The notes beneath the pieces are model-generated. The model saw only the letters and a program-made list of their open reading frames with translations. It was not told where the DNA came from and did not search any database. Positions 38,301 to 58,475 of a stretch of 64,000 nucleotides of DNA are shown here, piece by piece. Position 1 is the first letter of the stretch. Every line of letters begins with the position of its first letter. A program made the translations under genes and the position numbers. The DNA is from Taeniopygia guttata (Eukaryota; Chordata; Aves; Passeriformes; Estrildidae), in NCBI RefSeq assembly GCF_048771995.1, contig NC_133059.1, forward strand, positions 3,089,001 through 3,153,000, given 5' to 3'.

Positions 38301-41300
38301 CCACTGTTTTCCCACAATTGTCCTGATGATTTTCCCAGTATTTTTCCATCATTTCCCCACAATTTCCCCACGATTTCCCCATGATTTTCCCAGTGATTTC
38401 TCCATGATTTTTCCATGATTTTTGCACGATTTTCCCCATGATTTCCCCATGATTTTTGCACAATTTTTCCCACGATTTCCCCACAATTTCCCGGCGATTT
38501 TCCCGCCGTTTTCCCGATGTTTTCCCGTTGTTTTCCCACAATTTCCCGGCGATTTTCCTGCTGTTTTACCCATGATTTCCCCACGATTTCCCTGTGATTT
38601 CCTGGTGATTTTCCCACTGTTTTCCTGTTGTTTTCCCGTTGTTTCCCCATGATTTCCCCACGATTTCCCGGTGATTTTCTTGATGTTTTCCCGCTGTTTT
38701 CCCACGATTTTCCCCACAATTTCCCTGCAATTTTCCCGCTATTTTCCCCATGATTTCCCCACAATTTCCCCGTGATTTCCTGGCGATTTTCCCGACGTTT
38801 TCCCGCTGTTTCCCCACGATTTCCCCGTGATTTCCCGGCGATTTTCCCGCTATTTTCCCCATGATTTTCCCACAATTTCATGGCGATTTTCCCGACATTC
38901 TCCCCATGATTTCCCCACAATTTCCCATTGATTTTCCCGCCGTTTTCCTGCTGTTTTCCCCACGATTTCCCCGTGATTTCCTGGCGATTTTCCCGACATT
39001 TTCCCCATGATTTCCCCATAATTTCCCCACAATTTCCTGGCGATTTTCCCAACGTTTTCCTGCTGTTTTCCCACTGTTTTCCCCGTGATTTCCCGGCGAT
39101 TTTCCCGATGTTTTCCTATTGTTTTCCCCACAATTTCCCTGTGATTTCCCGGCGATTTTCCCGACATTTTCCCCATGATTTCCCCATAATTTCCCCACGA
39201 TTTCCTGGTGATTTTCCCGACATTTTCCAGTTGTTTTCCCTATTATTTCCCCACGATTTCCCCGGGATTTCCCAGCGATTTTCCTGACGTTTTCCCGACG
39301 TCCCGGTGATTTTCCACAATTTCCCCATGATTTCCCCATAATTTCCCCACAATTTCCCGCCGTTTTCCCGCCGTTTTCCCGCCGTTTTCCCGCTGTTTTC
39401 CGACGTTTTCCCGGCTCTTTCCCAGGGGGCCTCGGCGCTGTTCGACATGATCGAGTACTACGAGTCGGCCACGCACCTCAACATCGGCTCCAACAAACAC
39501 CTGGGGGCCCGCGGCTGGCAGGCGGCCGCACACATGATGAGGAAGGTGAGAATTCCCGAAATTCCTGGGAATTCCTCCCCAAAATTCCCAAAACTCCAGA
39601 GTTTTCCTCCCAAATTCCCAAAATTCCTGAGTTTTCCCCAAAATTCCTGGGATTCCCTGAGGGTTTCTGTGCCCTGGGAGGGGCAGGGATGGCTCAGGTG
39701 GGAGCCAGAGGTGATGAGGAAGGTGAGAATTCCCAAAATTCCCCGAATTCCTGGGAATTATTCCCTGAAATTCCCCAAATTCTCCAGTTTTTCACCCAAA
39801 TTCCCAAAATTCCTGAGTTTTCCCCCAAAATTCCTGGGATTCCCTGAGGGATTCTGTTCCCTGGGAGGGGCAGGGACAGCTCAGGGTGGGAGCCAGAGGT
39901 GATGAGGAAGGTGAGAATTCCCAAAATTCCTGAAATTCCTGGGAATTCCTCCCCAAAATTCCCAAAATTCCTGAGTTTTCCCCAAAAATTCCTGAGTTTT
40001 CCCCAAAATTCCTGAGTTTTCCCCCAAAATCCCCGGGGTTCCCGGTGTTCCTGTGCCCTGGGAGGGGCAGGGACGGCTCAGGTGGGAGCAGACGGCAGCA
40101 GAAGTGATTAGGAAGGTGAGAATTCCCAAAATTCCCCAAATTCCTGGGAATTCCTCCCCAAAATTCCTCAAAATTCCTGAGTTTTCCCCCAAAATTCCTG
40201 AGTTTTCCCCCAAAATTCCTGGGATTCCCTGAGGGTTTCTGTTCCCTGGGAGGGGCAGGGACGGCTCAGGTGAGAGCCAGAGGTGATGAGGAAGGTGAGA
40301 ATTCCCAAAATTCCCAGAATTCCTGGGAATTATTCCCTGAAATTCCCAAAATTCCCCAGTTTTCCCCCAAAATTCCCGAGTTTTCCCCCAAAATTCCTGG
40401 GATTCCCTGAGGGTTTCTGTTCCCTGGGAGGGGCAGGGACGGCTCAGGTGGGAACCAGAGGTGATGAGAACAGTGAGAATTCCCAAAATTCCCCAAATTC
40501 CTGGGAATTCCTCCCCGAAATTCCCAAAATTCCACAGTTTTTCCCCCAAAATTCCCGAATTCCTGAGTTTTCCCCCAAAATCCCCGGCGTTCCTGAGGGA
40601 TTCTGTGCCCTGGGAGGGGCAGGGACGGCTCAGGTGGGAGCAGGCGGCCGCACACATGATGAGGAAGGTGAGAATTCCCAAAATTCCCACAATTCCTGGG
40701 AATTCCGCCGCGAAATTCCCAAAATTCCACAGTTTTCCCCCCAAATTCCCAAAATTCCCCAGTTTTCCCCCAAAATTCCCGGGTTTCCTAGTGTTCCTAT
40801 GCCCTGGGAGGGGCAGGGACGGCTCAGGTGAGAGCAGACGGCAGCAGAAGTGATTAGGAAGGTGAGAATTCCCAAAATTCCCCCAATTCCTGGGAATTCC
40901 TCCCTGAAATTCCCAAAATTCTTGAGTTTTCCCCCCAAATTCCCAAAATTCCTGAGTTTTCCCCCAAAATTCCCGGGGTTCCGGGCGTTCCTGAGGGATT
41001 CTGTGCCCTGGGAGGGGCAGGGACGGCTCAGGTGGGAGCCAGAGGTGATGAGGAAGGTGAGAATTCCCAAAATTCCCCGAATTCCTGGGAATTCCTCACT
41101 GAAATTCCCAAAATTCCTGAGTTTTCCCCCCAAATTCCTGAGTTTTCCCCAAAAATTCCTGAGTTTTCCCCCAAAATTTCTGGGATTCCCTGAGGGATTC
41201 TGTGGCCTGGGAGGGGCAGGGACGGCTCAGGTGGGAGCCAGAGGTGATGAGGATGGTGAGAATTCCCAAAATTCCCCAAATTCCCGGGAATTCCGCCCCG

Positions 41301-44300
41301 AAATTCCCAAAATTCCCCAGTTTCCCCCCAAATTCCCAAAATTCCTGAGTTTTCCCCCAAAATTCCCGGCGTTCCTGAGGGATTCTGTGGCCTGGGAGGG
41401 GCAGGGACGGCTCAGGTGGGAGCCAGAGGTGATGAGGAAGGTGAGAATTCCCAAAATTCCCCAAATTCCTGGGAATTCCACCCCGAAATTCCCAAAATTA
41501 TTGAGTTTTCCCCCCAAATTCCCAAAATTCCTGAGTTTTCCCCCAAAATTCCACAAATTCCTGAGTTTTCCCCCAAAATTCCTGGGATTCCCTGAGGGTT
41601 TCTGTTTCCTGGGAGGGGCAGGGATTAGGAAGGTGAGAATTCCCAAAATTCCCAGAATTCCTGTGAATTAGTCCCTGAAATTCCCAAAATTCCCGAGTTT
41701 TCCCCCCAAATTCCCAAAATTCCACAGTTTTCCCCCAAAATTCCTGAGATTCCCAATTTTTTCCCCCCAATTCCTGGAATTCCAGGGAATTTCAGCCACT
41801 CCTGAGGGTTTTTGTGCCTGGGAGGGGCCGGGAGGGCTCAGAGTGGCTGAGAATTCCCAAAATTCCCAAAATTCCACGGAATCATTGCCGGGATTCCCTG
41901 AAATTCCCCAAATTCCCAAAAAAAAGGGGTGGAACATCCCTGGGAGAAGCTTTTCCCGGGATAATTATTGCCAACAAAGGGTTAATTATCCCAACAAAGG
42001 ACGGAATATTGTCACCCCAATTATCCCAATTATCCCAATTATCCCAATTATCCCAATTATCCCAACCACGATCCCGATTTTCCGGTTCTTTCCCAACCCC
42101 CTCATTTCCCTTGGGGCGCTCCCGGGAATTCCAGAGGCGTTGGAATTATTGTTTGGGAATTGTTTGGGAATTGTTTGGGACTTCTGCTCCCGGACCCGTC
42201 CCTGAATTCCCAAATTCTCCTCCAGAATTCCCAAATTCTCCCCCAGAATTCCCAAATTCTCCTCTGAAATTCCCAAATTCTCCTCTGAAATTCCCAAATT
42301 TTCCTCTGAAATTCCCAAATTCTCTCCCAGAATTCCCAGATTTTCTTCTGGAATTTTAAAATTCTCCGGAATTCTCAAATTCTCTCCCAGAATTCCCAAA
42401 TTCTCTCCCAGAATTCCCAAATTCTCTCCCAAAATTCCCAAATTCTCCTCTGAAATTCCCAAATTCTCTCCCAAAATGCCCGAATTTTCTTCTGGAATTT
42501 TAAAATTCACTGGAATTTCCAAATTCTCTCCCAGAATTCCCAAATTCTCTCCAGAATTCCCAAATTCTCCTCTGAAATTCCCAAATTCTCTCCCAGAATT
42601 CCCGAATTTTCTTCTGGAATTTTAAAATTCTCCGGAATTCTCAAATTCTCCTCCTGAATTCCCAAATTCTCCTCCTGAATTCCCAAATTCTCTCCCAGAA
42701 TTCCCAAATTCTCCCCCAGAATTCCCAGATTTTCTTCTGGAATTTTAAAATTCTCCAGAATTCTCAAGTTCTCTCCCAAAATTCTCAAATTCTCCTCCTG
42801 AATTCCCAAATTCTCTCCCAGAATTCCCAGATTTTTGTCCCAGACTTTTCCTGGCTCGGATTCCAGCTCCGGGATTGGATCCGTGGGAATTTTTGGGGAT
42901 TCCCTGGGCTTGGGAAATCTGGGATTTTCGGGAAATCTGGGAATTCTGGGATGTTTTCCCAAATTTCCTGGCTCAGGTTTCCCCAGGGCAGTCAGGATCC
43001 CGCCAGAGGTGTGTCCCGATCCCAAATTCCAACCCCAGATCCCAAATTCCAACCCCAAATCCCAAATCCTGACCCCAAATCCCTAATTTCTTTTCCTGCA
43101 GTTCCTGGGGGGGTCAGAACCCATCCCAAATCCCAAATCCCAAATCCCGACCCCAAATCCCAAATCCCGACCCCAAATTCCCATTTTTCCCCCCAGACCA
43201 GCTGCCTGCAGTTCCTGGGGGGGGTCCCAATCCCAAATCCTGACCCCAAATCCCAAATTTCTTTTCCTGCAGCTCCTGGGATGGGACAGAACCCATCCCA
43301 AATCCCAAATCCTGACCCCAAATCCCAAATCCTGACCCCAAATCCCGAATTTCTTTTCCTGCAGTTCCTGGGGGGGTCAGAACCCGCCCCAAATCCCAAA
43401 TCCTGACCCCAAATCCCCATCCCAAATCCCAAATTCCCGTTTTCCCCCCAGACCAGCTGCCTGCAGTTCCTGGGATGGGTCAGAACCCATCCCAAATCCC
43501 AAATCCTGACCCCAAATTCCCGAATTTCCCCCAGACCAGCTGCCTGCAGTTCCTGGGCGGGTCCCAATCCCAAATCCTGACCCCAAATCCCAAATCCTGA
43601 CCCCAAATCCCGAATTTCTTTTCCTGCAGTTCCTGGGGGGGTCAGAACCCATCCCAAATCCCCATCCCAAACCCCAAATCCCAAATCCTGACCCCAAATC
43701 CCAAATCCTGACCCCAAATTCCCGATTTCCCCCCAGACCAGCTGCCTGCAGTTCCTGGGATGGGTCAGAACCCATCCCAAATCCCAAATCCTGACCCCAA
43801 ATCCCAAATCCTGACCCCAAATCCCAAATCCTGACCCCAAACCCCAAATCCTGACCCCAAATCCCCAATCCCGACCCCAAATTCCCATTTTTCCCCCAGA
43901 CCAGCTGCCTGCAGTTCCTGGGATGGTCAGAACCCATCCCAAATCCCAAATCCCGACCCCAAATTCCCATTTTTCCCCAGACCAGCTGCCTGCAGTTCCT
44001 GGGGGGGTCCCAATCCCAAATCCCGACCCCAAATTCCCATTTTTCCCCCCAGACCAGCTGCCTGCAGTTCCTGGGGGGGTCAGAACCCATCCCAAATCCC
44101 AAATGCTGACCCCAAATCCCTAATCCCGACCCCAAATCCCAAATCCTGATCCCAAATTCCCGTTTTTCCCCCAGACCAGCTGCCTGCAGTTCCTGGGGGG
44201 GGGGGTCCCAATCCCAAATCCCGACCCCAAATCCCAAATCCCAACCCCAAATCCCAAATCCCGACCCCAAATTCCCGTTTTTTCCCCCCAGACCAGCTGC

Positions 44301-47300
44301 CTGCAGTTCCTGGGATGGGTCCCAAATCCCAAATCCTGACCCCAAATCCCAATCCCAAATCCCAAAATCCCATTTTTTCCCCAGACCAGCTGCCTGCAGT
44401 TCCTGGGGGGGTCCCAATCCCAAATCCTGACCCCAAATCCCAAATCCCGACCCCAAATTCCCGTTTTTTCCCCCAGACCAGCTGCCTGCAGCTCCTGGGG
44501 GGGTCCCAAATCCCAAATCCTGACCCCAAATCCTGACCCCAAATCCCAAATACTGACCCCAAATCCCGTTTTTCCCCCAGACCAGCTGCCTGCAGTTCCT
44601 GGATGGGTCAGAACCCATCCCAAATCCCAAATCCTGACCCCAAATCCCAAATCCCGACCCCAAATCCCAAATCCTGACCCCAAATCCCAAATCCCGACCC
44701 CAAATTCCCGTTTTTTCCCCCCAGACCAGCTGCCTGCAGTTCCTTGGTGGGGTCCCAATCCCAAATCCTGACCCCAAATCCCAAATCCCGACCCCAAATC
44801 CCAAATTTCTTTCCCTGCAGCTCCTGGGATTGGTCAGAACCCATCCCAAATCCCAAATCCCGACCCCAAATTCCCGTTTTTTCCCCCAGACCAGCTGCCT
44901 GCAGTTCCTGGGGGGATCCCAAACCCCAAATCCCAAATCCTGACCCCAAATCCCCATCCCAAATCCCAAAATCCCGAATTTTCCCCCCAGACCAGCTGCC
45001 TGCAGTTCCTGGGGAGGTCCCAAATCCCAAATCCTGACCCCAAATCCCAAATCCTAACCCCAAATCCCGAATTTCTTTTCCTGCAGTTCCTGGGATGGGT
45101 CAGAACCCATCCCAAATCCCCATCCCAAATCCCAAATTCCCGTTTTTTCCCCCAGACCAGCTGCCTGCAGTTCCTGGGATGGGTCCCAATCCCAAATCCT
45201 GACCCCAAATCCTAAATCCCGACCCCAAATTCCCGTTTTTCCCCCAGACCAGCTGCCTGCAGTTCCTGGGGGGGTCAGAACCCATCCCAAACCCCAAATC
45301 CTGACCCCAAATCCCAAATCCCAAACCCCAAATCCCAAATCCCGACCCCAAATCCCAAATCCCGACCCCAAATTCCCGTTTTTCCCCCCAGACCAGCTGC
45401 CTGCAGTTCCTGGGGGGGTCCCAACTCCAAATCCCAAATCCCGACCCCAAATTCCCATTTTCCCCCAGACCAGCTGCCTGCAGTTCCTGGATGGGTCAGA
45501 ACCCACCCCAAATCCCAAATCCCAAACCCCAAACCCCAAATCCAAAATCCCAAATCCCAAATCCCGACCCCAAATCCCAATCCCAAACCCCAAACCCCAA
45601 ATCCTGACCCCAAATCCCAAATCCTGACCCCAAATCCCAAATCCTGACCCCAAATTCCCGTTTTTCCCCAGACCAGCTGCCTGCAGTTCCTGGGGGGGTC
45701 CCAAACCCCAAATCCCGACCCCAAATTCCCGTTTTTCCCCCAGACCAGCTGCCTGCAGTTCCTGGACGCGCGGAACACGCCGCTGCTGGAGCCGTCTGCG
45801 CCGCTGGTTGCGCGGGCGCTGCGCATCAGCAGCAGCCTGACCGTGCTGCACCTGGAGAACACCGCGCTGTCCGGGAGGCCCCTCATGCTGCTCGGTCAGA
45901 TTCCCAAAATTCCCCAATTCCCGAATTCCCGGGAGCTCCCGGCACGGCAGGGAGGTGGGGAGGAAGGGGTTAAAGGGGTTTGGGGTGGGGGAGCGGGGAG
46001 GGGCTGTTGGGAATATTCGCTGTTTTTCCATCCATTTTCCGTCAATTTTCCCTATTTTTCCCCTTTTTCCATCCATTTTCCCCATTATTCCATCATTTTT
46101 CCATCCATTTCCCCATTTTCCATCCATTTTCCCCATTTCCCATCAATTTTTTCCCATTTTTCCATCCATTTTCCAACCCATTTTCCATCCATTTTTCCAT
46201 CCATTTTTTCCCCATTTTTCCATCAGTTTTCCCCATTATTCCATCCATTTTCCCCATTTTCCGTCAATTTTCCCCATTTTTCCCCTTTTTCCATCCATTT
46301 TCCATCAATTTCCCCCATTTTTCCCATTTTCCCGACCATTTTCCCCATTTTTCTGTCAATTTTCCCCATTTTCCCATTTTTCCATCCATTTTCCCTCAAT
46401 TTTCCCCATTTTTCCCCGTTTTCCATCCATTTTCCCCATTTTCCGTCAATTTCCCCCATTTTTCCCATTTTCCCATCCATTTTTCCTCTTTTTCCATCCA
46501 TTTTTTCCCATTTTTCCATCCATTTTTCCCATTTTTCCATCAGTTTTCCCCATTATTCCATCATTTTTCCATCCATTTTCCCCTCTCTTTTTTCATACAT
46601 TTTCCCATCAATTTTCCCAGTTTTCCATCCACTTTTCTATCAATTTTCCCCATTTTCCACCCACTTTCCCCATTTTTCATCCATTTTCCCCATTTTTCCA
46701 TCCGTTTTTCCACCCATTTTTCCATCCATTTTTCCACCCATTTCTCCACCCATTTTTTCCCATTTTTCCACCCATTTTTCCCGTTTCCCCGCCCATTTTC
46801 CTGCCGTTGCTGGTGACAATCCCGGCCCCATTCCCGGTTATTTCCCATTCCCATTTCCCGGTTATTTCCCGGTTATTTCCCATTCCCGTTATTCCCGGTT
46901 ATTTCCCGGTTATTTCCCGGTTATTTCCCGGTTATTCCCGGTTATTTCCCGGTTATTCCCGGTGCTGATTCCCGGTTTTCCGGCAGCCACGGCGCTGAGG
47001 ATGAACGTGGCGCTGCGGGAGCTGTACCTGGCGGACAATGGCCTGGGCTCCCGTTATTCCCGTTATTCCCGTTATTTCCTGGTTATTTCCCGGTTATTCC
47101 CGGTTATTTCCCGGTTATTCCCGGTTATTCCCGGTGCTGATTCCCGGTTTTCCGGCAGCCACGGCGCTGAGGATGAACGTGGCGCTGCGGGAGCTGTACC
47201 TGGCGGACAATAAGCTGAACGGGCTGCAGGACTCGGCGCAGATCGGGAACCTGCTCAAGTTCAACGGCTGCATCCAGATCCTGGACCTGCGCAACAACCA

Positions 47301-50300
47301 CCTCGCCGACTCCGGTGGGAATTACGGAATTCCGGATGGGAATTCCAGATGGGAATAACAATGGGAATTCCGGATGGGAATGATGGGAGTAATGGGAATT
47401 GTGGGGTTTGGGAATTGTGGGGTTTGGGAATGTGGGAACGGGCTGGAGCTGCGCAACAACCACCTCGCCGACTCCGGTGGGAATTACGGAATTCCCGACA
47501 GGAATTCCAGATGGGAATAATTGTGGGAATTCTGGACAGGAATAACAATGGGAATTGTGGGAATAATGGGAATTCCAGATGGGAATTGTGGGGTTTGGGA
47601 ATGTGGGAACGGGCTGGAGCTGCGCAACAAACACCTCACCGACTCCGGTGGGAATTCCGGAATTCCCAACAGGAATTCCAGATGGGAATAACAATGGGAA
47701 TCGTGGGAATGACAGGAATTCCGGATGGGAATAACAACGGGAGTAATGGGAGTAACGGGAATTGTGGGGTTTGGGAACGTGGGAATGGGGCTGGGGCTGT
47801 TCAACAACCACCTCACCGACTCTGGTGGGAATAACGGAATTCCGGATGGGAATAACAGTGGGAATCGCGGGAATTCCAGCTGGAAAAAATGGGAATTCCA
47901 AGCGGGAGTAATGGGAGTCAGGGGAATTGTGGGGTTTGGGAATTGTGGGGTTTGGGAATGTGGGAATGGGCTGGAGCTGCGCAACAACCACCTCACCGAC
48001 TCCGGTGGGAATTCGGGAATAACGGGAATTCCAGATGGGAATCACAGCGGGAATTGTGGGAATGACAGGAATTCCAGATGGGAATAACAACGGGAATCGT
48101 GGGAATATTGGGAATTCCAGATGGGAATAACAATGGGAATTGTGGGAATAATGGGAATTCCAGATGGGAATAGCAGCGGGAATCGTGGGAATGACAGGAA
48201 TTCCGGATGGGAATAACAATGGGAATTGTGGGAATTCCAGATGGGAATAACAATGGGAATAACGGGAATGACGGGAATTCCAGATGGGAATAACAACGGG
48301 AACAATGGGAGTCACGGGAATTGTGGGGTTTGGGAACATGGGAATGGGCTGGAGCTGCACAACAACCGCCTCACCGACTCCAGTGGGAATTCCGGGAATT
48401 CCTGATGGGAATCACAGTGGGAATCACGGGAATAATGGGAATTCTGGATGGGAATAACAACGGGAGTAACGGGAATTCCAACTGGGAGTAACGGGAATAA
48501 TGGGAATAATGGGAATTCCCACCGGGAATGGCAGGAATTTCGGGGTTTGGGAATGTGGGAATGGGGTTTGGAATGGGAGTTGGGAATGGGGTTGGGAATG
48601 TGGGAATGGGGTTGGGAATGTGGGAATGGGGTTTGGAATGGGATTTGGAATGGGAGTTGGGAATGGGGTTTGGAATGGGAGTTGGGAATGGGGTTTGGAA
48701 TGGGTTTGGGAATCCCTGATCCCTGTTTTTCCATGCCTGGCCTGACGCCGTTTTTCCCGGGAATTCCGGGCCATTCCCGCTTTCCCCTGACGCCGTTTTT
48801 CCCGGGATTTCCGGGCCATTCCCGCTTTTCCCTGACGCCGTTTTTCCCGGGATTTCCGGGCCATTCCCTGACGCCGTTTTCCCAGGATTTCCGGGCCATT
48901 CCTGCTTTTCCCTGACGCCGTTTTCCCGGGATTTCCGGGCCATTCCCGCTTTTCCCTGACGCCGTTTTCCCAGGATTTCCGGGCCATTCCCGCTTTTCCC
49001 TGACGCCGTTTTTCCCGGGATTTCCGGGCCATTCCCGCTTTTCCCTGACGCCGTTTTCCCGGAATTCCGGGCCGTTCCCGCTTTTCCCTGGCACCGTTTT
49101 TCCCGGGAATTCCGGGCCATTCCCTGACGCCGTTTTCCCAGGATTTCCGGGCCATTCCCACTATTCCCTGACGCTGTTTTCCCAGGATTTCCGGGACATT
49201 CCCACTTTTCCCTGATGCCCGTTTTCCCGGGATTTCTGGGCCATTCCCGCTTTCCCCTGACGCCGTTTTTCCCGGGAATTCCGGGCTATTCCCGCTTTTC
49301 CCTGACGCTGTTTTTCCCGGGATTTCGGGGCCATTCCCGCTTTTCCCTGACGACGTTTTTCCCGGGATTTCCGGGCCATTCCCACTATTCCCTGACGCCG
49401 TTTTTCCCGGGAATTCCGGGCTATTCCCGCTATTCCCTGACGCCGTTTTTCCCGGAATTTCCGGGCTTTTCCTGCTTTTCCCTGATGCCGTTTTTCCCGC
49501 GATTTCCGGGCCATTCCCGCTTTTCCCTGACGCCGTTTTTCCCGGTATTTCCGGACCATTCCCACTTTTCCCTGATGCCCGTTTTCCCGGGATTTCCGGG
49601 CCATTCCCTGACGCCGTTTTCCCAGGATTTCCGGGCTATTCCCACTTTTCCCTGATGCCCATTTTCCCGGGATTTCCGGGCCGTTCCCGCTTTTCCCTGA
49701 CGCCGTTTTTCCCGGGATTTCCGGGCTATTCCCGCTTTCCCCTGACGCCGTTTTTCCCAGGATTTCCGGGCTATTCCCTGATTCCCATTTTCCCGGGATT
49801 TCCGGGCTATTCCCACTATTCCCTGATGCCCAATTTCCCAGGATTTCCGGGCCATTCCCGCTTTTCCGTGATGCCCAATTTCCCGGGATTTCCTGGCTAT
49901 TCCCTGACGTCGTTTTTCCCGGGATTTCCGGGCCATTCCCGCTTTTCCTTGATGCCCGTTTTCCCGGGATTTCTGGGCCATTCCCGCTTTTCCCTGACGC
50001 CGTTTTTCCCGGGATTTCCGGGCCATTCCCACTTTTCCCTGACGCCGTTTTCCCGGGAATTCCGGGCCATTCCCGCTTTTCCAGGCCTGGCGTACATCTG
50101 CGAGGGGCTGCGGGAGCAGCGCCGGGGGTTGGTGACGTTGGTGCTGTGGAACAACCAGCTCAGCCACGCCGGAATGGCCTATCTGGGAATGACCCTGGTG
50201 AGAATTCCCGGCGGAAACGCCGGAATCCTCGGCTTCCGGGCCGTTCAGTGGTGGATTTCCGGGATTTTCTGATGGGTTTCCAGGGATTTTCTTTGATTTC

Positions 50301-53300: not shown

Positions 53301-56300
53301 ACTCCCTGCTGCGCCTCGACCTCGACCGCGAGCCCAAGAAGGAGCCGGTGCGTCCCGGAATTCCCAAAAAATCCCCCGCAATTCCCAAAAAAACCCAAAA
53401 TTCCCCCCGGTTCCGTGGGGGCGTTCCCGGCACCGGAGGTTTTGGGGGTCGGTTTGAGGATGAGCTCGAGGAGGAGGTGCTGTGTCCCAGAATTGCCAAA
53501 TATTCCTAAAAAAATTCCTAAAAAATTCCTGGAATTCCTCAAAAAAAAATATTCCTGGAATTCTCAAGGAAAATCGTGGAGTTCCCAAAAATCCCCGCGG
53601 TTCTGGGGTGTTCCCAGGGCGGGAAAGCGGCACCGGAGGTTTTGGGGGTTGGTTTGAGGATGAGCTCGAGGAGGAGGTGGTGTGTCCCAGAATTCCCAAA
53701 AAACTCATGGAATTTCAAAGATTTCTGGGAATTTCCAAAAAATCCCCGGAATTCCCAAAAAAATTCTAGGAATTCCCAAAATTCCCGCATTTCTGGGGCA
53801 TTCCTGCGGCGGGCAGCAGCACCGGAGGCGGTGGGGGTCGGTTTGAGGATGAGCTCGAGGAGGAGGTGCTGTGTCCCAAAATTCCCCCAAAAAAATCCTG
53901 GAATTCCTGAAAAAATTCCCGGAATTCCCCAAAAAATTGCTGGAATTCCCAAAAAAATTGCTGGAATTCCCAAGGAAATCTGGGAATTCCCAAAAATCCC
54001 CGCGGTTCTGGAGCGTTCCCGGGGTGGGAAGCGGCGCCGGAGGTGTCGGGGATTGGGAATTCAAGTACGAGCCTAAGAATTCCCAGAATTCCCAAAAAAT
54101 TCATGGAATTTTAAAAAAATCCTGCAATCCCCCTAGAAATTCCTGAAATTCCCAAAAAAATTCCTGAAATTCCCCCAAAAATTCCGATATTTTGGGGCAT
54201 TCCCGGAGCGGGAAGCGGCGCCGGAGGCATTGGGCGTTTGGGATTCAAGCATCAGCCTAAGAACTGCCGGAATTCCCAAAGAAGTCATGGAATTCCTAAC
54301 GAATTCCCCAAAAATTCATGGAATTCCAACAAAATTCCCGAAATTCCCCAAGAAATTCCCCTGAAATTCCAAGATTTTGGGGCATTCCCGGAGTGGGAAG
54401 TGGCGCCTCAGGTGTCGGGGATTGGGGATTCAAGTATGAGCCTAAGAATTCCCAGAATTCCCAAAAAATTCATGGAATTAAAAAAAATTCCTGCAATCCC
54501 CCTAGTAATTCCTGAAATTCCCCCCAAAATTCCTGAAATTCCCCCAAAAATTCCGATATTTTGGGGCGTTCCCGGAGCAGGAAGCGGCGCTGGAAGCGTT
54601 GGGGGTTTGGGGTTGGTTCCTGATGGTTTTTCCAGGTTTTTCCAGGATTTTCCTTGGATTTGCCAAGTTTTCCCAGGAATTAAGCCCCGGGGGTTTTGGG
54701 GATAAGGGATCATTCCCAGCTCCAGGAATTTTGGGAATCTCCAGCATCCAATATTTTGCATTCCCACATTTTTTGGGTGTCTTTTCCCTGTGGGAAAACC
54801 CTTTTTTTTTAATCCGGATCCCGCGGATTTCCCCATTTCCCAGCGGGAATTTTGGGAATTCCGGGAATCTCCATCCTCCGACCCCCTCAGGAATCCCAAA
54901 TCCTGATCCAGAACCCCCCAAAAATTGGGGAAAAGCCCCAAAATTCCGCATTTCCCTCTCTTAAAGGGCCAGCGCCACAAAAGCGCAGCGCGGCGTGGAA
55001 GCGCCGTCATTCCTGGGATTTTCCCGGGATTTTTTCCGGGATTTTTTCCGGGATTTTCCCGACATTCCCGGATTTTTCCCGGCAGGTGAAGAGCTTCCTG
55101 GAGACGCAGAAGGCGCTGCTGGCCGAGATCCAGAACGGCTGCAAGCGGAATTTCATCCTGGCCAAGGAGAAGGAGGAGCAGGAGCAGCTCCGGCACTCGG
55201 CCTCCATGGCCGAGATCTCCGATCCCGGAATTCCCGAGGATCCCGGAATTCCCGAGGATCCCGGGATTCCCGAGGATCCCGGAATTCCCGCCGGCGCCGC
55301 CTCGACCGCCCCGGAGGAGAACGGGAACGCGGCTCCGGCCGGAGATTCCAGCTCGGACACCGAGGAGGAGGAGGAGGATGGGGAGAAAGGCTCCAGGGAG
55401 GTTGTGGAATCTGGGAATTCCGGGAATTCCGGGAATTCCGGGAATGCCGAGCGCAGGATTTCCGTCTCCAGCCCCGGCAGGGGCCGCAAGATCTTTGTGG
55501 TGACGCGGGTGGAGAACGTTCCAGAGGGATCCGGGGTCATTCCCAAGGAATCCAGGGTCATTCCTGAGGAATCCGGGGTCATTCCCAAGGAATCCGGGGT
55601 CATTCCCAAGGAATCCGGGGTCGTTCCCAAGGAATCCGGGGTTGTTCCAAAGGAATCCAGGGTCATTCCCAAGGAAACTGGGGTCGTTCCCGAGGAATCC
55701 GGGGTCATTCCCGAGGAATCTGGGGTCGTTCCCAAGGAATCTGGGGTCGTTCCCGAGGAATCTGGGACTGTTCCTGGTGGATCTGGCGCCGTTCCCGAAG
55801 GATCTGGGACAATTTCTGATGGATCCAGAGCCGTTCCCGATGGATCCGGGGTCGTTTCCATCGGATCCACCTCTGTTCCTGATGGATCCAGAGCCGTACC
55901 CGAAGGATCTGGGACAATTCCTGATGGATCCGGGGTCGTTCCCGATGGATCCGGGGTCGTTTCCATCGGATCCACCTCCGTTCCCGATGGATCCAGAGCC
56001 GTTCCTGAAGGATCTGGGACAATTCCTGTTGGATCCGGCACCGTTCCCGATGGATCCAGGGTTGTTCCCGATGGATTTGGAGCCGTTCCCAAAGGATCCG
56101 GGGCCGTTCCCGATGGATCTGGGGTTGTTCCCAATGGATCCAGCTCCATTCCCGTTGGATCTGGCGCTGTTCCCGATGGATCCGGCCCCATTCCCGTTGG
56201 ATCTGGGATTGTTCCCGTTGGATCCGGCGCCGATCCCATCGCACCCGGTGCCGTTCCCGATGGATCCGGGGCCCTTCCTGTTGGATCTGGGATTGTTCCT

Positions 56301-58475
56301 GTTGGATCTGGGATTGTTCCCGTTGGATCTGGGATTGTTCCTGTTGGATCTGGGATTGTTCCTGATGGATCTGGGATTGTTCCTGTTGGATCTGGGATTG
56401 TTCCCGATGGATTTGACGCCGTTCCCGGTGGATCTGGCACTGTTCCCGATGGATCCGGGATTGTTCCTGTGGGATCCAGGCCCGTTCCTGTCGGATCCGG
56501 GGCCATTCCCGATGGATCCGGGATTGTTCCTGTTGGATCCGGGGCTGTTTCCGTTGGATCCGGGGCCATTCCCGATGGATCCGGAGCCGTTCCCATCGAA
56601 TCCGGACCCATTCCCGATGGATCTGGGATTGTTCCTGTTGGATCTGGGATTGTTCCTGGTGGATCTGGGATTGTTCCTGATGGACTTGGAGCCGTTCCCG
56701 ATGGATCCAAGATTGTTCCCGTCGGATCCGTGGCCGTTCCCATCGAATCCGGACCCATTCCCGATAGATCCGGGGCCGTTCCCGATGGATCTGGGATTGT
56801 TCCCGATGAACTTGCAGCTGTTCCCGTCGGATCCGGGGCCGTTCCCGGTGGATCTGGGATTGTTCCCATCGGATCCGATCTCGTTCCCGACCTGCGGCCG
56901 CGCCGGGCCGGCGCCTCCGAGGGAATTCCGTGCGGGAGCCCCTCCCGGGATTCGCCGCTTCCCAACGGGCTGAAGGCGGATTTCGCCCGGGCGCTGCCAG
57001 AGCCGGGCCTGGAGAGCGACGGAAAACCGGGAACGGGAACGGCCGAGCGCGGTGAGAGCCCGGAATTCCGACCCCGCCCGCTCCGGAGCGCAGAAAAGTG
57101 GGAATGGGGCGGGAAAGTGGGAAAAGAGCCGGAAAAACTGGGAAAGCAGTGGGAAAATTCCAAATCTCTGGGTCAAAAATGGGAAAAAATGGGAAAGCAG
57201 CTGGAAAATCCCAAATCTCTGGGTTGGGAATGGGAAAATCTGGGAATGCAGCTGGAATTGGGGTGGAAAAGTGGGAAAAGAGCGGGGAAAAATGGGAAAA
57301 GAACTGGAAAAACTGGGAAAGGAGTGGGAAAATTCCAAATCTCTGGGTTGGGAACGGGAAAATCTGGGAATGCAGCTGGGATTGGGGTGGAAAAGTGGGA
57401 AAAGCAGCGGGAAAATCCCAAATCCTTGGGTTGGGAACAGGAAAATCTGGGAATGCAGCTGGAATTGGGGTGAAAAAGTGGGAAAAGAGCCAGAAAAACT
57501 GGGAAAGGATCTGGAAAAACTGGGAAAGGAGTGGGAAAATCCCAAATCCTTGGGTTGGGAACAGGAAAATTTGGGAATGCAGCTGGAATTGGGGTGAAAA
57601 ACTGGGAAAAGAACTGGAAAATCTGGGAAAGCAGTGGGAAAATTCCAAATCTCTGGGTCAGAAATGGGAAAAAATGGGAATGCAGCTGGGATTGGGGTGA
57701 AAAATGGGAAAAGCAGCGGGAAAATCCCAAATCCTTGGGTTGGGAACAGGAAAATTTGGGAATGCAGCTGGGATTGGGATGGGAAAGTGGGAAAACTGCT
57801 GGAATTGGGGAGGAACATTGGGAATGTGGCTGGGATTGGGGTGAAAATTGGAAAAGAAGCTGGAACTGGGGTGAAAAACTGGGAAAAGCAGCGGGAAAAT
57901 CCCAAATCTCTGGGTTGGGAATGGGAAAATCTGGGAATGCAGCTGGAATTGGGGAGAAAAACTGGGAAAAGAGCCAGAAAAACTAGGAAAGCAGTGGGAA
58001 AATTCCAAATCTCTGGGTCAGAAATGGGAAAAAATGGGAAAGAAGCAGGAAAATCCCAAATCTCTGGGCTGGGAACAGGAAAATCTGGGAATGCAGCTGG
58101 AATTGGGGTGAAAACTGGGAATGGGGTTGGGATAGGGGTTAAAAACTGGGAAAGGAGTGGGAAAATCCCAAATCTCTGGGTTGGGAACAGGAAAATCTGG
58201 GAATGCAGCTGGAATTGGGGTAAATAAACAGGGAAGAAACAGGAATTGGGGTGAAAAACTGGGAAAAGAACTGGAAAATCGGGGAAAGGAGTGGGGGAAT
58301 CCCAGATTCCTGGGCTGGGATTTCCGGGAATGGTTCCGGAAGGTTCCATGTCCCCCCCCCCGCAGAGCTGCAGGAGCTGCAGGAATTGCAGGAATTGCAG
58401 GAATTGCAGGAATTGCAGGAATTGCGGGAGCTGCTCCGCGAGGCCGCCCAGGACACGGCGCCGGAGCCGCTGTGA
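29201..58475 (+). CDS. PPP1R37: PPP1R37, LRR-containing protein phosphatase 1 regulatory subunit 37 (complete)
   Basis: Exons: 29201-29360, 33794-33891, 34975-35020, 37272-37372, 39426-39545, 45744-45894, 47159-47314, 50085-50197, 51711-51852, 53181-53347, 55086-57051, 58366-58475. All are GT..AG with consistent phases, giving 1,109 residues against about 690 in human. Seen: KRVTFPSDEEIVSGAVEPKD at about residue 30, containing the RVxF PP1-docking motif; the LRR domain at about residues 90-415 (for example YYESATHLNI, ELYLADNKLNGLQDSAQIGN, LRLDLRENDIKTGGLMALSL); ETQKALLAEIQNGCKRNF; an acidic tail; a heptapeptide array at about residues 563-1022; PLPNGLKADFARALPEPG; and a final Leu/Gln/Glu helix. 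Known: it binds PP1 through RVxF and inhibits it. The ATG aligns with human; the extra length is almost all the array. Confidence 0.95.
29361..30675. repeat. G-rich array at PPP1R37 exon 1 donor
   Basis: Copies of gggagagaaccgggaggg and ggacaccgggacaccggg begin a few bases after the donor. GGG every few bases makes the sense strand strongly G-quadruplex-prone and the nascent RNA G-rich. Confidence 0.9.
30676..31555. repeat. PPP1R37 intron 1 CA-rich array
   Basis: Copies of ccccaaaaccagccccaaaa and atcaccccaaa, no G-runs. The left edge has tgaaaccagcccaaataata forms. Confidence 0.88.
31575..32310. repeat. PPP1R37 intron 1 GGATCC-rich array
   Basis: Copies of ttttgggatcctgactggat and gggatccaaacaggaattt, about 27-32 bp each, with many GGATCC sites. 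Confidence 0.88.
32311..32580. other. Non-repetitive, partly AT-rich island in PPP1R37 intron 1
   Basis: A stretch that does not belong to either flanking array. It has a pyrimidine tract and CCCCGCAG at 32334, then cattaattattcattaat (about 32374-32408) with several TAAT cores, and later a run of nine G. It could hold a regulatory element or unused exon; no coding potential seen. Confidence 0.4.
32581..33788. repeat. Homopyrimidine array before PPP1R37 exon 2
   Basis: About 1.2 kb of almost pure T/C (ttttttcccatttttcccc), acceptor-proximal. Several blocks of about 300-400 bp recur, for example ccccttttttcc plus catattttcccc. Confidence 0.9.
33794..33891 (+). CDS. PPP1R37: PPP1R37 exon 2
   Basis: Acceptor GATTTCCAG, donor ACAG|GTAAGC. 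It encodes RNVTLEETLAAYRQACLKLQ and then CRQSPKLIKQLQ, aligned to human GAYKQACQKLNCRQIPKLLR. Confidence 0.94.
33892..34965. repeat. A-rich minisatellite in PPP1R37 intron 2
   Basis: Units with aaaattaccaaattaaaaaa and tcccaaaataccaaatctc, roughly 60-65 bp, then simpler ccccaaatcccaaattccc. It is the most AT-rich array of the window. Confidence 0.88.
34975..35020 (+). CDS. PPP1R37: PPP1R37 exon 3 (46 bases)
   Basis: Acceptor GTTTTCCAG, donor AAGG|GTGAGT. It encodes ELKDLAPRIECLDLK, the entry to the LRR domain. Confidence 0.93.
35060..37255. repeat. PPP1R37 intron 3 array
   Basis: Copies of caggaatttctggggatttt and tcaggaatttctcaggaatt, with cttcctcagaactttttc variants. It fills the intron. 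Confidence 0.9.
37272..37372 (+). CDS. PPP1R37: PPP1R37 exon 4
   Basis: Acceptor TTTTTCCAG, donor GGAC|GTGAGC. It encodes GEKLDYRACEAMEEIFKRLQ and then FKLLDLEHTSLDED. Confidence 0.94.
37380..39420. repeat. PPP1R37 intron 4 arrays
   Basis: Gggaattttcggg forms and a ttttccagggtttttctggg part to about 37,700, then copies of gatttccccacgatttccc and ggcgattttcccg to the acceptor, with recurring blocks of about 200 bp. Confidence 0.9.
39426..39545 (+). CDS. PPP1R37: PPP1R37 exon 5
   Basis: Acceptor CTTTCCCAG, donor GAAG|GTGAGA. It encodes GASALFDMIEYYESATHLNI and then RGWQAAAHMMRK. Its last bases and donor are the seed of the array that follows. Confidence 0.95.
39546..41640. repeat. Donor-containing minisatellite after PPP1R37 exon 5
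   Basis: About 11 units of 175-200 bp. Each holds ggctcaggtgggagccag, gatgaggaag|gtgag (the exon 5 end and donor; some units read gattaggaag), aaaattcctgagttttccc and ccctgggaggggcaggg. The unit near 40645-40675 even keeps gcaggcggccgcacacatga from the exon. Confidence 0.93.
41641..42185. other. Mixed, partly unique part of PPP1R37 intron 5
   Basis: Degenerate copies of the previous array, then a more unique AT-richer part at about 41,940-42,065 with ggataattattgcc and seven ccaattat copies. No gene seen. Confidence 0.4.
42186..42840. repeat. PPP1R37 intron 5 AATTC array
   Basis: Copies of cccaaattctctcccagaat and tcttctggaattttaaaatt, about 20 bp base unit in blocks of about 120 bp. Confidence 0.87.
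42990..45743. repeat. Acceptor-containing minisatellite before PPP1R37 exon 6
   Basis: Twenty intact copies of the exon 6 acceptor plus exon start (cccccag|accagctgcctgcag) precede the real one at 45744. The intervals are 75-255 bp, filled with atcccaaatcctgacccca. Six more partial copies keep only ttttcctgcagttcctgg. Confidence 0.95.
45744..45894 (+). CDS. PPP1R37: PPP1R37 exon 6
   Basis: Acceptor TTTTTCCCCCAG, donor CTCG|GTCAGA. It encodes TSCLQFLDARNTPLLEPSAP and then VLHLENTALSGRPLMLL. The last of 21 acceptor-plus-exon-start copies is the only one that continues into LRR code. Confidence 0.94.
46020..46800. repeat. PPP1R37 intron 6 array
   Basis: Copies of ttttccatccattttcccc, acceptor side of intron 6, followed by cccggttatttcccggtta copies to about 46,960. 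Confidence 0.9.
46869..47212. repeat. PPP1R37: 172-bp tandem duplication including the start of PPP1R37 exon 7
   Basis: Two head-to-tail copies offset by 172 bp. The first has acceptor TTTTCCGGCAG and 54 exon bases (46987-47040, through the code for LYLADN) before it falls back into gttattcccg repeats; the second is the real exon 7. Confidence 0.93.
47159..47314 (+). CDS. PPP1R37: PPP1R37 exon 7
   Basis: Acceptor TTTTCCGGCAG, donor TCCG|GTGGGA (weak). It encodes ATALRMNVALRELYLADNKL and then ILDLRNNHLADS. A truncated copy of its start lies 172 bases upstream. Confidence 0.92.
47315..48720. repeat. Array carrying copies of the PPP1R37 exon 7 end and donor
   Basis: Five copies of ctgcgcaacaaccacctc plus gactccg|gtggg near 47450, 47620, 47795, 47975 and 48350, separated by gggaataacaatgggaattg repeats. 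The last copy has lost the GT. The right part (48,545-48,720) is gggaatggggtttggaat. Confidence 0.93.
48725..50084. repeat. Array of the PPP1R37 exon 8 acceptor tract, about 46 bp unit
   Basis: About 28 copies of gggccattcccgcttttccc and tgacgccgtttttcccggg. The final copy at 50064-50084 is the real acceptor gggccattcccgcttttccag. Array copies have ccctgacg where the real site has ccaggcctg. Confidence 0.92.
50085..50197 (+). CDS. PPP1R37: PPP1R37 exon 8
   Basis: Acceptor CGCTTTTCCAG, donor CCTG|GTGAGA. It encodes LAYICEGLREQRRGLVTLVL and then WNNQLSHAGMAYLGMTL. Confidence 0.95.
50270..51700. repeat. PPP1R37 intron 8 arrays
   Basis: To about 51,050 copies of ttttccatggattttccttg and tctgttggttttcc; then, to the acceptor, ccccacggattttccctg with ttttttcccccgcatc. 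Confidence 0.9.
51711..51852 (+). CDS. PPP1R37: PPP1R37 exon 9
   Basis: Acceptor GGCTCCCGCAG, donor GAAG|GTGCGC. It encodes PHTQSLETLNLGHNALGNEG and then SVLRLGLACTRLTCE. Confidence 0.95.
51855..53175. repeat. PPP1R37 intron 9 arrays
   Basis: Three blocks: cattcccgggattttccctc to about 52,390; ttgggatggacctggaaaag (20 bp) to about 53,030; then ccccaaattcccgg to the acceptor. Here a purine-rich block lies between two pyrimidine-rich ones. Confidence 0.9.
53181..53347 (+). CDS. PPP1R37: PPP1R37 exon 10
   Basis: Acceptor TTTTTCCGTCAG, donor GCCG|GTGCGT. It encodes GAVAVAEFVAESPRLLRLDL and then VNHSLLRLDLDREPKKEP, closing the LRR domain. Confidence 0.95.
53400..54600. repeat. PPP1R37 intron 10 minisatellite, about 190-210 bp unit
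   Basis: About six or seven units, each with ggcaccggaggttttggggg, gaggatgagctcgaggagg (clear in the first three) and cccagaattcccaaaaaa. The gaggaggtgctgtgtcccag part resembles the exon 10 donor region ggagccg|gtgcgtcccgg, so it may be another donor-seeded array, though more diverged. Confidence 0.85.
54601..55085. other. Non-repetitive end of PPP1R37 intron 10
   Basis: About 480 bases of mostly single-copy sequence up to the exon 11 acceptor, with the last 80 bases carrying cgggattttttccgggatt repeats. No gene or clear element seen. Confidence 0.4.
55086..57051 (+). CDS. PPP1R37: PPP1R37 exon 11 (1,966 bases, contains heptapeptide array)
   Basis: Acceptor TTCCCGGCAG, donor GCGCG|GTGAGA. 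It opens with VKSFLETQKALLAEIQNGCK, then DPGIPE repeats, an acidic run, GNS repeats, the heptad array, and closes with SPLPNGLKADFARALPEPG, the human SGPPLPNGLKPEFALALPPE equivalent. Open throughout in the frame set by exon 10. Confidence 0.92.
55518..56898 (+). repeat. PPP1R37: 21-bp coding minisatellite, about 65 heptapeptides
   Basis: Tandem 21-bp units such as ggatctgggattgttcccgt, read as GSGIVPV, GSGAVPD or, at the left end, ESGVIPK. About 65 uninterrupted in-frame copies. Left units use Glu/Lys (IPKES, IPEES), right units use Asp/Gly/Ser, so the array has two subfamilies. Confidence 0.93.
57090..58340. repeat. PPP1R37 intron 11 minisatellite
   Basis: Units of about 80-130 bp with aaatctctgggttgggaa, tctgggaatgcagctgg and gaaaaactgggaaaag, nine copies of the aatgcagctgg core. 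Confidence 0.9.
58366..58475 (+). CDS. PPP1R37: PPP1R37 exon 12, C-terminus
   Basis: Acceptor CCCCCCCGCAG. A caggaattg 9-mer repeated five or six times encodes ELQELQELQEL, then RELLREAAQDTAPEPL and TGA at 58473-58475. Human ends ELEELLLEASQESGQETL. The Leu spacing suggests a short helix. Confidence 0.9.

What the first reader, a model, noticed from the sequence alone, without database searches (positions are those of the whole stretch)
42990..45743. A splice acceptor and exon start multiplied 20 times inside its own intron
The unit contains the pyrimidine tract, the CAG acceptor and the first 15-20 bases of PPP1R37 exon 6 (TSCLQF), repeated 20 times intact plus six partial times, before the real exon. 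Every copy is a credible 3' splice site. Units followed by GGGGGG|GTCAGA also supply a donor identical to the true exon 6 donor (GTCAGA), which would define 27-base, phase-0 mini-exons (TSCLQFLGG). How the last acceptor is chosen, or whether others are used, is an open question. I know of no described class of minisatellite defined by a host splice boundary.
Basis: partly seen in the sequence, partly recalled or inferred. Interest (0 to 1): 0.86.

Follow-up and report, generated by a model that had tools for sequence, protein, structure and literature searches.

The report
Exon edge copied through bird intron
In a bird gene on a tiny chromosome, the start of one exon with its splice site has been copied about twenty times into the neighbouring intron; this is a clear new example of a recently described avian instability called exon stuttering, and it gives a good place to ask how cells pick the right splice site.

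Summary
Twenty exact copies of CAG|ACCAGCTGCCTGCAG lie at 43197-45672, before the true PPP1R37 exon 6 (45744), with six partial copies; 0 of 200 shuffled introns reached the best match.
It is not alone. The same intron has 11 copies of the exon 5 end with its donor; intron 6 has one exon 7 acceptor copy, intron 7 five exon 7 donor copies. Published screen criteria give 24 proximal, 0 distal hits in the two genes modelled.
The class is described: 'exon stuttering' on chicken dot chromosomes (PMC12954441), 'mirages' in amphioxus (PMC3087553). So 'no described class' is wrong. The frame claim is off: GGGGGG|GTCAGA units make 26-base mini-exons; 2 of 7 full GTCAGA units make 27.
Best explanation: tandem duplication across the exon border, tolerated because the complete exon stays at the array's edge, with decoys mostly ignored by splicing (inferred). 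The last decoy, 72 bases upstream, is open and in frame: test that one.
New member of a known kind, in a passerine-like genome.

The parts
39426..39545 (+). PPP1R37 exon 5 (source of the donor-side copies), donor GTGAGA
   Evidence: gene model; tblastn
39702..41644 (+). Donor-side array: 11 copies of the exon 5 end (28 exon bases intact in the copy whose donor is at 40668, fewer in the others) plus donor GTGAGAATTCCC; donors at 39723, 39911, 40116, 40295, 40473, 40668, 40862, 41057, 41256, 41441, 41633
   Evidence: 11 above the shuffle level; search without requiring GT: the same 11, all with GT; one more 12-mer at 41847 has CT instead of GT and no exon-like side
43080..45743 (+). Acceptor-side array: 20 full and 6 partial copies of the intron 5 end plus the first ~22 bases of exon 6
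45672..45743 (+). Last decoy unit, 72 bases, open and in frame with exon 6 (TSCLQFLGGSQTPNPDPKFPFFPQ); the only one of 20 full decoys that is both in frame and stop-free
45744..45894 (+). PPP1R37 exon 6 (true), 151 bases, donor GTCAGA
   Evidence: LRR alignment across its start
46987..47039 (+). Single partial copy of the exon 7 start (53 bases), with acceptor, before the true exon 7
   Evidence: 26/26; 53 bases, 105 bits
47159..47314 (+). PPP1R37 exon 7 (true), source of copies on both sides
47443..48392 (+). Donor-side array in intron 7: 5 copies of the exon 7 end plus donor GTGGGAAT; donors at 47477, 47648, 47825, 48005, 48383
   Evidence: 3 of 5 pass the published bit score, the other two reach 34.2
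53662..53687 (+). Possible diverged copy of the exon 10 end plus donor (20/26 matches)
   Evidence: no hit of 20 bases

Best explanation
This is exon stuttering: on a repeat-rich avian dot-type microchromosome, short segments spanning an exon-intron border were tandemly duplicated and the copies spread through the adjacent intron by slippage or unequal exchange. Such duplications are tolerated because the copy that stays joined to the rest of the exon is the outermost one, so the reading frame is untouched. The decoys are probably mostly ignored through exon definition: the true acceptor pairs with a donor 151 bases away, whereas full decoys have either no such donor or one that would make an exon of 22-30 bases. 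Shown: copies, their position and orientation, their restriction to the intron side, intact exons, the local repeat setting. Inferred: duplication mechanism, tolerance by selection, low use of decoys.
For: 4 of 44 modelled splice borders have copies at 26/26 matches (exon 5 donor, exon 6 acceptor, exon 7 acceptor, exon 7 donor), and 6 of 44 exceed the 99% shuffle level. Published screen criteria: 24 proximal and 0 distal hits at 42.1 bits or more; 23 of 24 touch the exon border. In 264 kb of the same contig a separate scan found 15 of 288 candidate sites with 3 or more copies on the intron side and 0 of 288 on the wrong side; with 1 or more copies the numbers are 34 and 10. Some of the 15 are duplicates or repeat-like, see report. 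Tandem repeats cover 88% of those 264 kb and 0.6% of 20 kb of contig C1. Source is the exon: LRRC34 alignment across the junction. Same description in PMC12954441.
Against: No reads, RNA or second individual could be examined, so length variation (a hallmark) and splice choice are untested. The copy at 40668 matches exon 5 exactly over 28 bases while two other long-form copies carry the same five differences, which suggests later exchange with the true exon, a step that simple slippage does not explain. The exon part of the full acceptor copies is nearly identical (2 substitutions in 440 sites), so loss of splice sites was hardly expected and their retention says nothing about use. The wrong-side control is not empty at the 1-copy level (10 of 288). 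Dot-chromosome identity was not tested by homology.
Confidence: 0.88

Rival explanations
1. The decoy acceptors are used: the array acts as a length-variable splicing element, yielding some exon 6 extension (24 residues from the last decoy), mini-exons or exon 6 skipping.
For: The 20 full decoys look as good as the true site by pyrimidine tract and absence of upstream AG; the last is in frame and open. ABCA7: an intronic VNTR whose unit starts with a donor; retention of one unit is among the isoforms (2 +/- 1%, as I read the passage) and VNTR length raises exon 19 skipping (PMC5954066, passages). IFI6 uses repeat units as donors (PMC4526556, passage).
Against: Amphioxus mirages were reported not to interfere with regular splicing (PMC3087553, passages). 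19 of 20 decoys are out of frame or meet stops, or both, before exon 6. In ABCA7 the unit-retention isoform did not change with VNTR size. No RNA here.
Confidence: 0.2
2. The exon captured the repeat: a pre-existing intronic minisatellite supplied the acceptor and the first bases of exon 6.
For: The whole window is minisatellite-rich (85% by TRF), so a repeat at the border is not surprising. Ribonuclease inhibitor chains align over the same stretch only with a one-residue gap inside TSC-LQ.
Against: Exon 6 codons 1-7 encode part of a leucine-rich repeat aligned without a gap to LRRC34 across the junction; exon 5 and exon 7 edges behave alike, and no distal hit reaches the published score (0 at 42.1 bits; 6 of 40 hits are distal, at most 32.2 bits).
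Confidence: 0.03
3. Assembly artefact: the array is collapsed or inflated by assembly of a difficult GC-rich region.
For: Dot chromosome introns are hard to sequence (PMC12954441); the copy number here may be inexact.
Against: Units differ in spacing (61-203), tails and tracts; several unrelated borders show the same pattern; PHF8 arrays of this type were verified in raw nanopore reads in chicken (PMC12954441).
Confidence: 0.04

Closest known systems
Exon stuttering on chicken dot chromosomes (Hron et al. 2026, PMC12954441; sections 7, 9 and 16 and part 1 of section 8 read, the rest as abstract or passages)
   Same: Exon edge with its donor or acceptor copied as imperfect tandems through the adjacent intron; source at the exon border in more than 90% of cases; 1-44 copies; exons intact; dot chromosomes.
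   Different: PPP1R37 is not named in the main text; the gene list in Fig. S5 was not readable. Here one intron has both ends multiplied; whether the paper's set holds such cases is not known to me.
Mirages of amphioxus Adh3 and globin genes (PMC3087553, abstract and passages; the original Adh3 papers not seen)
   Same: Minisatellite-like tandem duplications of exon-intron borders, both 5' and 3', many keeping AG/GT, with length instability.
   Different: Amphioxus; 6 and 3 units in two haplotypes of one globin gene; reported regular splicing and, at Adh3, somatic instability, neither testable here. PMC12954441 holds no 'mirage', so the two literatures seem unlinked.
IFI6 (6-16) minisatellite (Turri et al. 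1995; seen only as a reference title and one citing passage)
   Same: A minisatellite whose units supply splice sites.
   Different: Donors, and used in human transcripts; that it spans the exon border is recalled, not seen.
ABCA7 intron 18 VNTR (PMC5954066, abstract and passages)
   Same: Tandem units carrying a splice donor next to an exon; length affects splicing.
   Different: Human, donor rather than acceptor, 25-base units, measured effect on exon 19 skipping.

Membership tests
[quoted passage not shown]
   exon 6 x20, exon 5 x11, exon 7 x1 and x5
Exon stuttering (PMC12954441) | BLASTn-short hit of 20 bases or more at 42.1 bits or more, proximal intron | tested here: met
   of 40 hits of 20 bases or more (24 exons, 22 introns, plus strand only), 24 reach 42.1 bits, all proximal; five shuffles reached at most 32.2 bits
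Exon stuttering (PMC12954441) | Copied source lies at the exon border | tested here: met
   23 of 24 hits touch the border; the exception is C7 57-105 in C6_C7 (exactly 42.1 bits, SR-coding stretch)
Exon stuttering (PMC12954441) | Exon itself intact, repeats do not cross exons | tested here: met
   open frame P1-P11; wrong-side scan 0 of 288 sites with 3 or more copies, but 10 of 288 with 1 or more. P11 has its own in-frame coding repeat
Exon stuttering (PMC12954441) | Location on a dot chromosome | tested here: inconclusive
   contig C36 is 4.45 Mb and 88% tandem repeat over 264 kb; homology to a named dot chromosome not tested
Exon stuttering (PMC12954441) | Intron length varies between individuals | not testable with these tools
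   one assembly only
Amphioxus mirage (PMC3087553) | Minisatellite-like duplication spanning an exon-intron border, with AG/GT in many units | tested here: met
   CAG kept in 20 of 20 full acceptor copies, GT in 11 of 11 exon 5 copies
Amphioxus mirage (PMC3087553) | Regular splicing undisturbed; length instability | not testable with these tools
   no RNA or population data

The most novel reading that the evidence does not exclude
A two-ended decoy intron: 12 donors (true + 11) face 21 full acceptors (true + 20) in one intron, and the array length, which would differ between birds, sets how often PPP1R37 uses the last decoy (24 residues added inside a leucine-rich repeat) or skips exon 6. Stuttering would then be a hypervariable splicing dial and not only tolerated noise.
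Probability: 0.15. Interest if true: 0.65.

Novelty: new member of a known kind. Interest (0 to 1): 0.42.

Why it matters
It extends a phenomenon described in chicken to what looks like a passerine, and shows it at both ends of one intron. Twenty near-identical acceptors in series make a natural test of exon definition: simple sequence features around the site do not tell them apart, so an accurate choice would have to come from exon length, the downstream donor or the order of transcription. It also suggests that amphioxus mirages and avian exon stuttering are one process described twice, a link that I did not find in the paper on stuttering ('mirage' 0 times, 'amphioxus' once, in its reference list).

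Tried and rejected
Exon captured from a repeat: rejected mainly on the LRRC34 alignment; ribonuclease inhibitor chains need a one-residue gap in TSC-LQ, so the support is good but not perfect. True acceptor chosen by a stronger branch point or tract: not supported, it lies inside the decoy range; no trained splice-site score was available. Selection keeping the exon part of the copies: the first comparison (2 substitutions in 440 exon sites against 129 in 680 intron letters) is not fair, because the intron columns are misaligned at T and C runs; after collapsing runs the exon part is the same in 20 of 21 and the intron side varies, by eye mostly at CpG-type positions, so I make no selection claim. 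Origin of the GTCAGA tail from the true exon 6 donor: a match of 7-8 bases, not tested against chance, left open. Partial copies: 6 of 6 carry the CAGA-type tail (5 TCAGA, 1 ACAGA) against 7 of 20 full copies (Fisher p 0.015), so they look like a propagated sub-type. Close paralogue of PPP1R37 as a contrast: none found. A macrochromosome gene control was not made; the only non-C36 stretch examined for repeats was 20 kb of C1, not chosen for genes. PPP1R37 with chicken in the literature: 4 papers listed, one opened for a passage, a gene-expression table entry in penguins, 3 not opened. A search for zebra finch, dot chromosomes and telomere-to-telomere listed 5 papers; besides PMC12954441 only PMC13192246 was looked into, by terms: no PPP1R37, CLASRP or intron in it. 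The list of 115 chicken genes is in a supplement that could not be read.

Rows dropped: one internal CLASRP exon and any PPP1R37 exon after P11 were not found, and earlier CLASRP exons lie before the window, so 'C4-C6' may hold an unmodelled exon and the border counts are for the 22 introns modelled. C6's end was changed between to fit the frame.
Full report
WHAT IS THERE. The window is contig C36:3089001-3153000 of a 1.14 Gb genome in 41 contigs. Lengths of 22 of the 41 contigs were seen: 115.9, 72.1, 152.5, 115.6, 73.8, 19.5 and 65.0 Mb for C1-C7, and 82.2 and 33.8 Mb for C40 and C41. I read this as the passerine order 1, 1A, 2, 3, 4, 4A, 5 ... Z, W; that is inference from recalled karyotypes, and it speaks against chicken (chromosome 1 about 196 Mb, recalled). 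C36 is 4.45 Mb.

Two genes were modelled on the + strand: CLASRP (13 exons in the window; at least one internal exon not found) and PPP1R37 (P1-P11). PPP1R37 reads open from P1 to P11 in one frame, Pfam finds leucine-rich repeats, and tblastn with the P4-P10 part places 7 pieces at the modelled sites, with two weak matches elsewhere at 28% and 33% identity.

THE ACCEPTOR ARRAY. Twenty exact copies of CAG|ACCAGCTGCCTGCAG precede the true exon 6 at 45744; six partial copies are interspersed. With the 26-base probe, 20 copies exceed the 99% shuffle level of 18 matches, the best reaches 26, and 0 of 200 shuffles reach it. All 20 have a pyrimidine tract of 8-12 and no further AG in the 45 bases upstream; 16 of 20 have a CYGAY word there, in 15 of them nearest at -25 to -28; the true site has a tract of 10 and the word at -26. 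So the true site is not marked by a stronger local sequence as far as these simple features go.

THE FRAME CLAIM. Of the 20 full decoys, 7 carry GTCAGA downstream: 2 give 27-base in-frame mini-exons (TSCLQFLGW), 5 give 26 bases. Over all 20, the first GT-type site counted gives 22 to 30 bases in 19, and none was found in one (44890). Reading through to exon 6, 1 of 20 decoys is both in frame and free of stops: the last, 72 bases upstream.

THE DONOR ARRAY AND OTHER BORDERS. The same intron holds 11 copies of the exon 5 end with donor GTGAGAATTCCC. A search that did not require GT found the same 11, all with GT; one more copy of the intron 12-mer, at 41847, has CT in place of GT and no exon-like side. 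One copy (donor at 40668) repeats 28 exon bases exactly; two others (40116, 40862) share five differences in the nearest 20 exon bases; the remaining eight differ at 6 to 10 of 20. Intron 6 has one copy of the exon 7 start (26/26), intron 7 five copies of the exon 7 end. In all, 6 of 44 modelled borders exceed the 99% shuffle level, 4 of them with 26/26; the weak two are the C6 donor (17/26) and the P10 donor (20/26); the other 38 of 44 show nothing above it.

PUBLISHED CRITERIA. Applying the settings given in PMC12954441 (blastn-short, dust off, 20 bases or more, 42.1 bits or more; plus strand only in my run) to 24 exons and 22 introns gave 40 hits, of which 24 reach 42.1 bits, all proximal: exon 6 in intron 5 (18), exon 7 in intron 7 (3), exon 5 in intron 5 (1), exon 7 in intron 6 (1), and one internal hit of CLASRP C7 (1). 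The 16 weaker hits include 2 more of exon 6, 2 more of exon 7 and 6 distal ones of at most 32.2 bits. Five shuffles gave 2 hits, at most 32.2 bits. By this measure 3 of 22 introns stutter at a border.

WIDER CONTIG. 100 kb on either side of the window were fetched. A de novo scan for 20-base exon edges recurring within 6 kb tested 288 candidate sites: 34 had 1 or more copies on the intron side against 10 on the wrong side; 15 had 3 or more against 0. Of the 15: 3134749 repeats 3134744; 3134745, 3087683 and 3087666 on the - strand are mirror images of + strand arrays; 3164118, 3065856 and 3022215 look like plain repeats by eye. That leaves eight: 3047983 (11 copies), 3087662 (7), 3134744 (20), 3136315 (5), 3155701 (7), 3170395 (9), 3215967 (5) and, on the other strand, 3031588 (3); the coding nature of 3155701 is the least certain. 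The exon 5 donor array fell below this scan's cut (1 copy). Translations suggest RELB, CLASRP, CLPTM1 and an ankyrin protein among the hosts (names recalled). Tandem repeats cover 88% of these 264 kb, against 0.6% of 20 kb of C1 that was not chosen for genes.

DIRECTION OF COPYING. The first residues of exon 6 (TSCLQFL) continue a leucine-rich repeat, and LRRC34 (8j07 chain w) aligns across the exon 5/6 junction with no gap there; a ribonuclease inhibitor chain (3tsr) aligns with a one-residue gap inside TSC-LQ. No array resembles a distant exon at the published score. The exon is therefore most likely the source.

WHAT IS KNOWN. PMC12954441 (sections 7, 9 and 16 and part 1 of section 8 read; passages) describes exon stuttering in chicken: 115 genes, 236 introns, 190 of them on dot chromosomes, borders copied with their donor or acceptor, 1-44 copies, exon part 20-187 bases, 183 of 192 such introns length-variable. 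It mentions repeat expansions in other birds and, as data not shown, gerbils. PMC3087553 (abstract and passages) describes mirages in amphioxus genes, both border types, with RT-PCR suggesting regular splicing. PMC5954066 (abstract and passages) and PMC4526556 (passage) give human cases in which repeat units carry donors that are used. The statement that no such class is described is therefore wrong. 'Exon stuttering' occurs in one paper of the library, so a passerine account was not found with that term; other terms, or papers outside the library, may hold one.

MECHANISM. Shown: copies, borders, sidedness, intact exons, repeat-rich setting. Inferred: a tandem duplication that spans a border leaves the complete exon attached to the outermost copy, so selection tolerates it, while a change on the exon side would be removed; this alone predicts the one-sided pattern. 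Expansion then follows by slippage or unequal exchange, of the kind PMC12954441 also discusses without proof. Decoys are probably passed over because the true acceptor defines a 151-base exon while full decoys define ones of 22-30 bases or none. Neither part was tested.

VERDICT. Observation confirmed with small corrections; interpretation partly supported; new member of a known kind. The scientific pull lies in the splice-choice question, which this intron makes easy to test.

Noticed in passing
window 55517-56890, in PPP1R37 exon P11 (55086-57051): A long coding minisatellite: TRF gives period 42 with 32.7 copies (74% matches) over 55517-56890, also read as 21-base units, in an exon open over 1966 bases. 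The repeat instability here also reached a coding exon.
   Followed up: partly
window 15169-17616, CLASRP intron C10-C11: A 22-base array (GGATAAAACCAGGATGGAACTG, 71 copies, 90% matches) passes directly into a 7-base array (GGAACTG, about 131 copies), whose unit is the end of the 22-mer.
   Followed up: no
G000:C5:60158125-60968672: Many kinase-like open frames in tandem, often at about 14.36 kb spacing; other kinase-like frames are scattered over small contigs such as C27-C36 (best candidates only).
   Followed up: no
G000:C36 about 3175000-3182000: Near-identical exon-like pieces recur several kb apart, looking like a small tandem gene duplication and not stuttering.
   Followed up: no
window 40116, 40668, 40862 (donors): Long-form exon 5 copies: one exact over 28 exon bases, two sharing the same five differences, which suggests renewed copying or conversion from the true exon.
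   Followed up: partly
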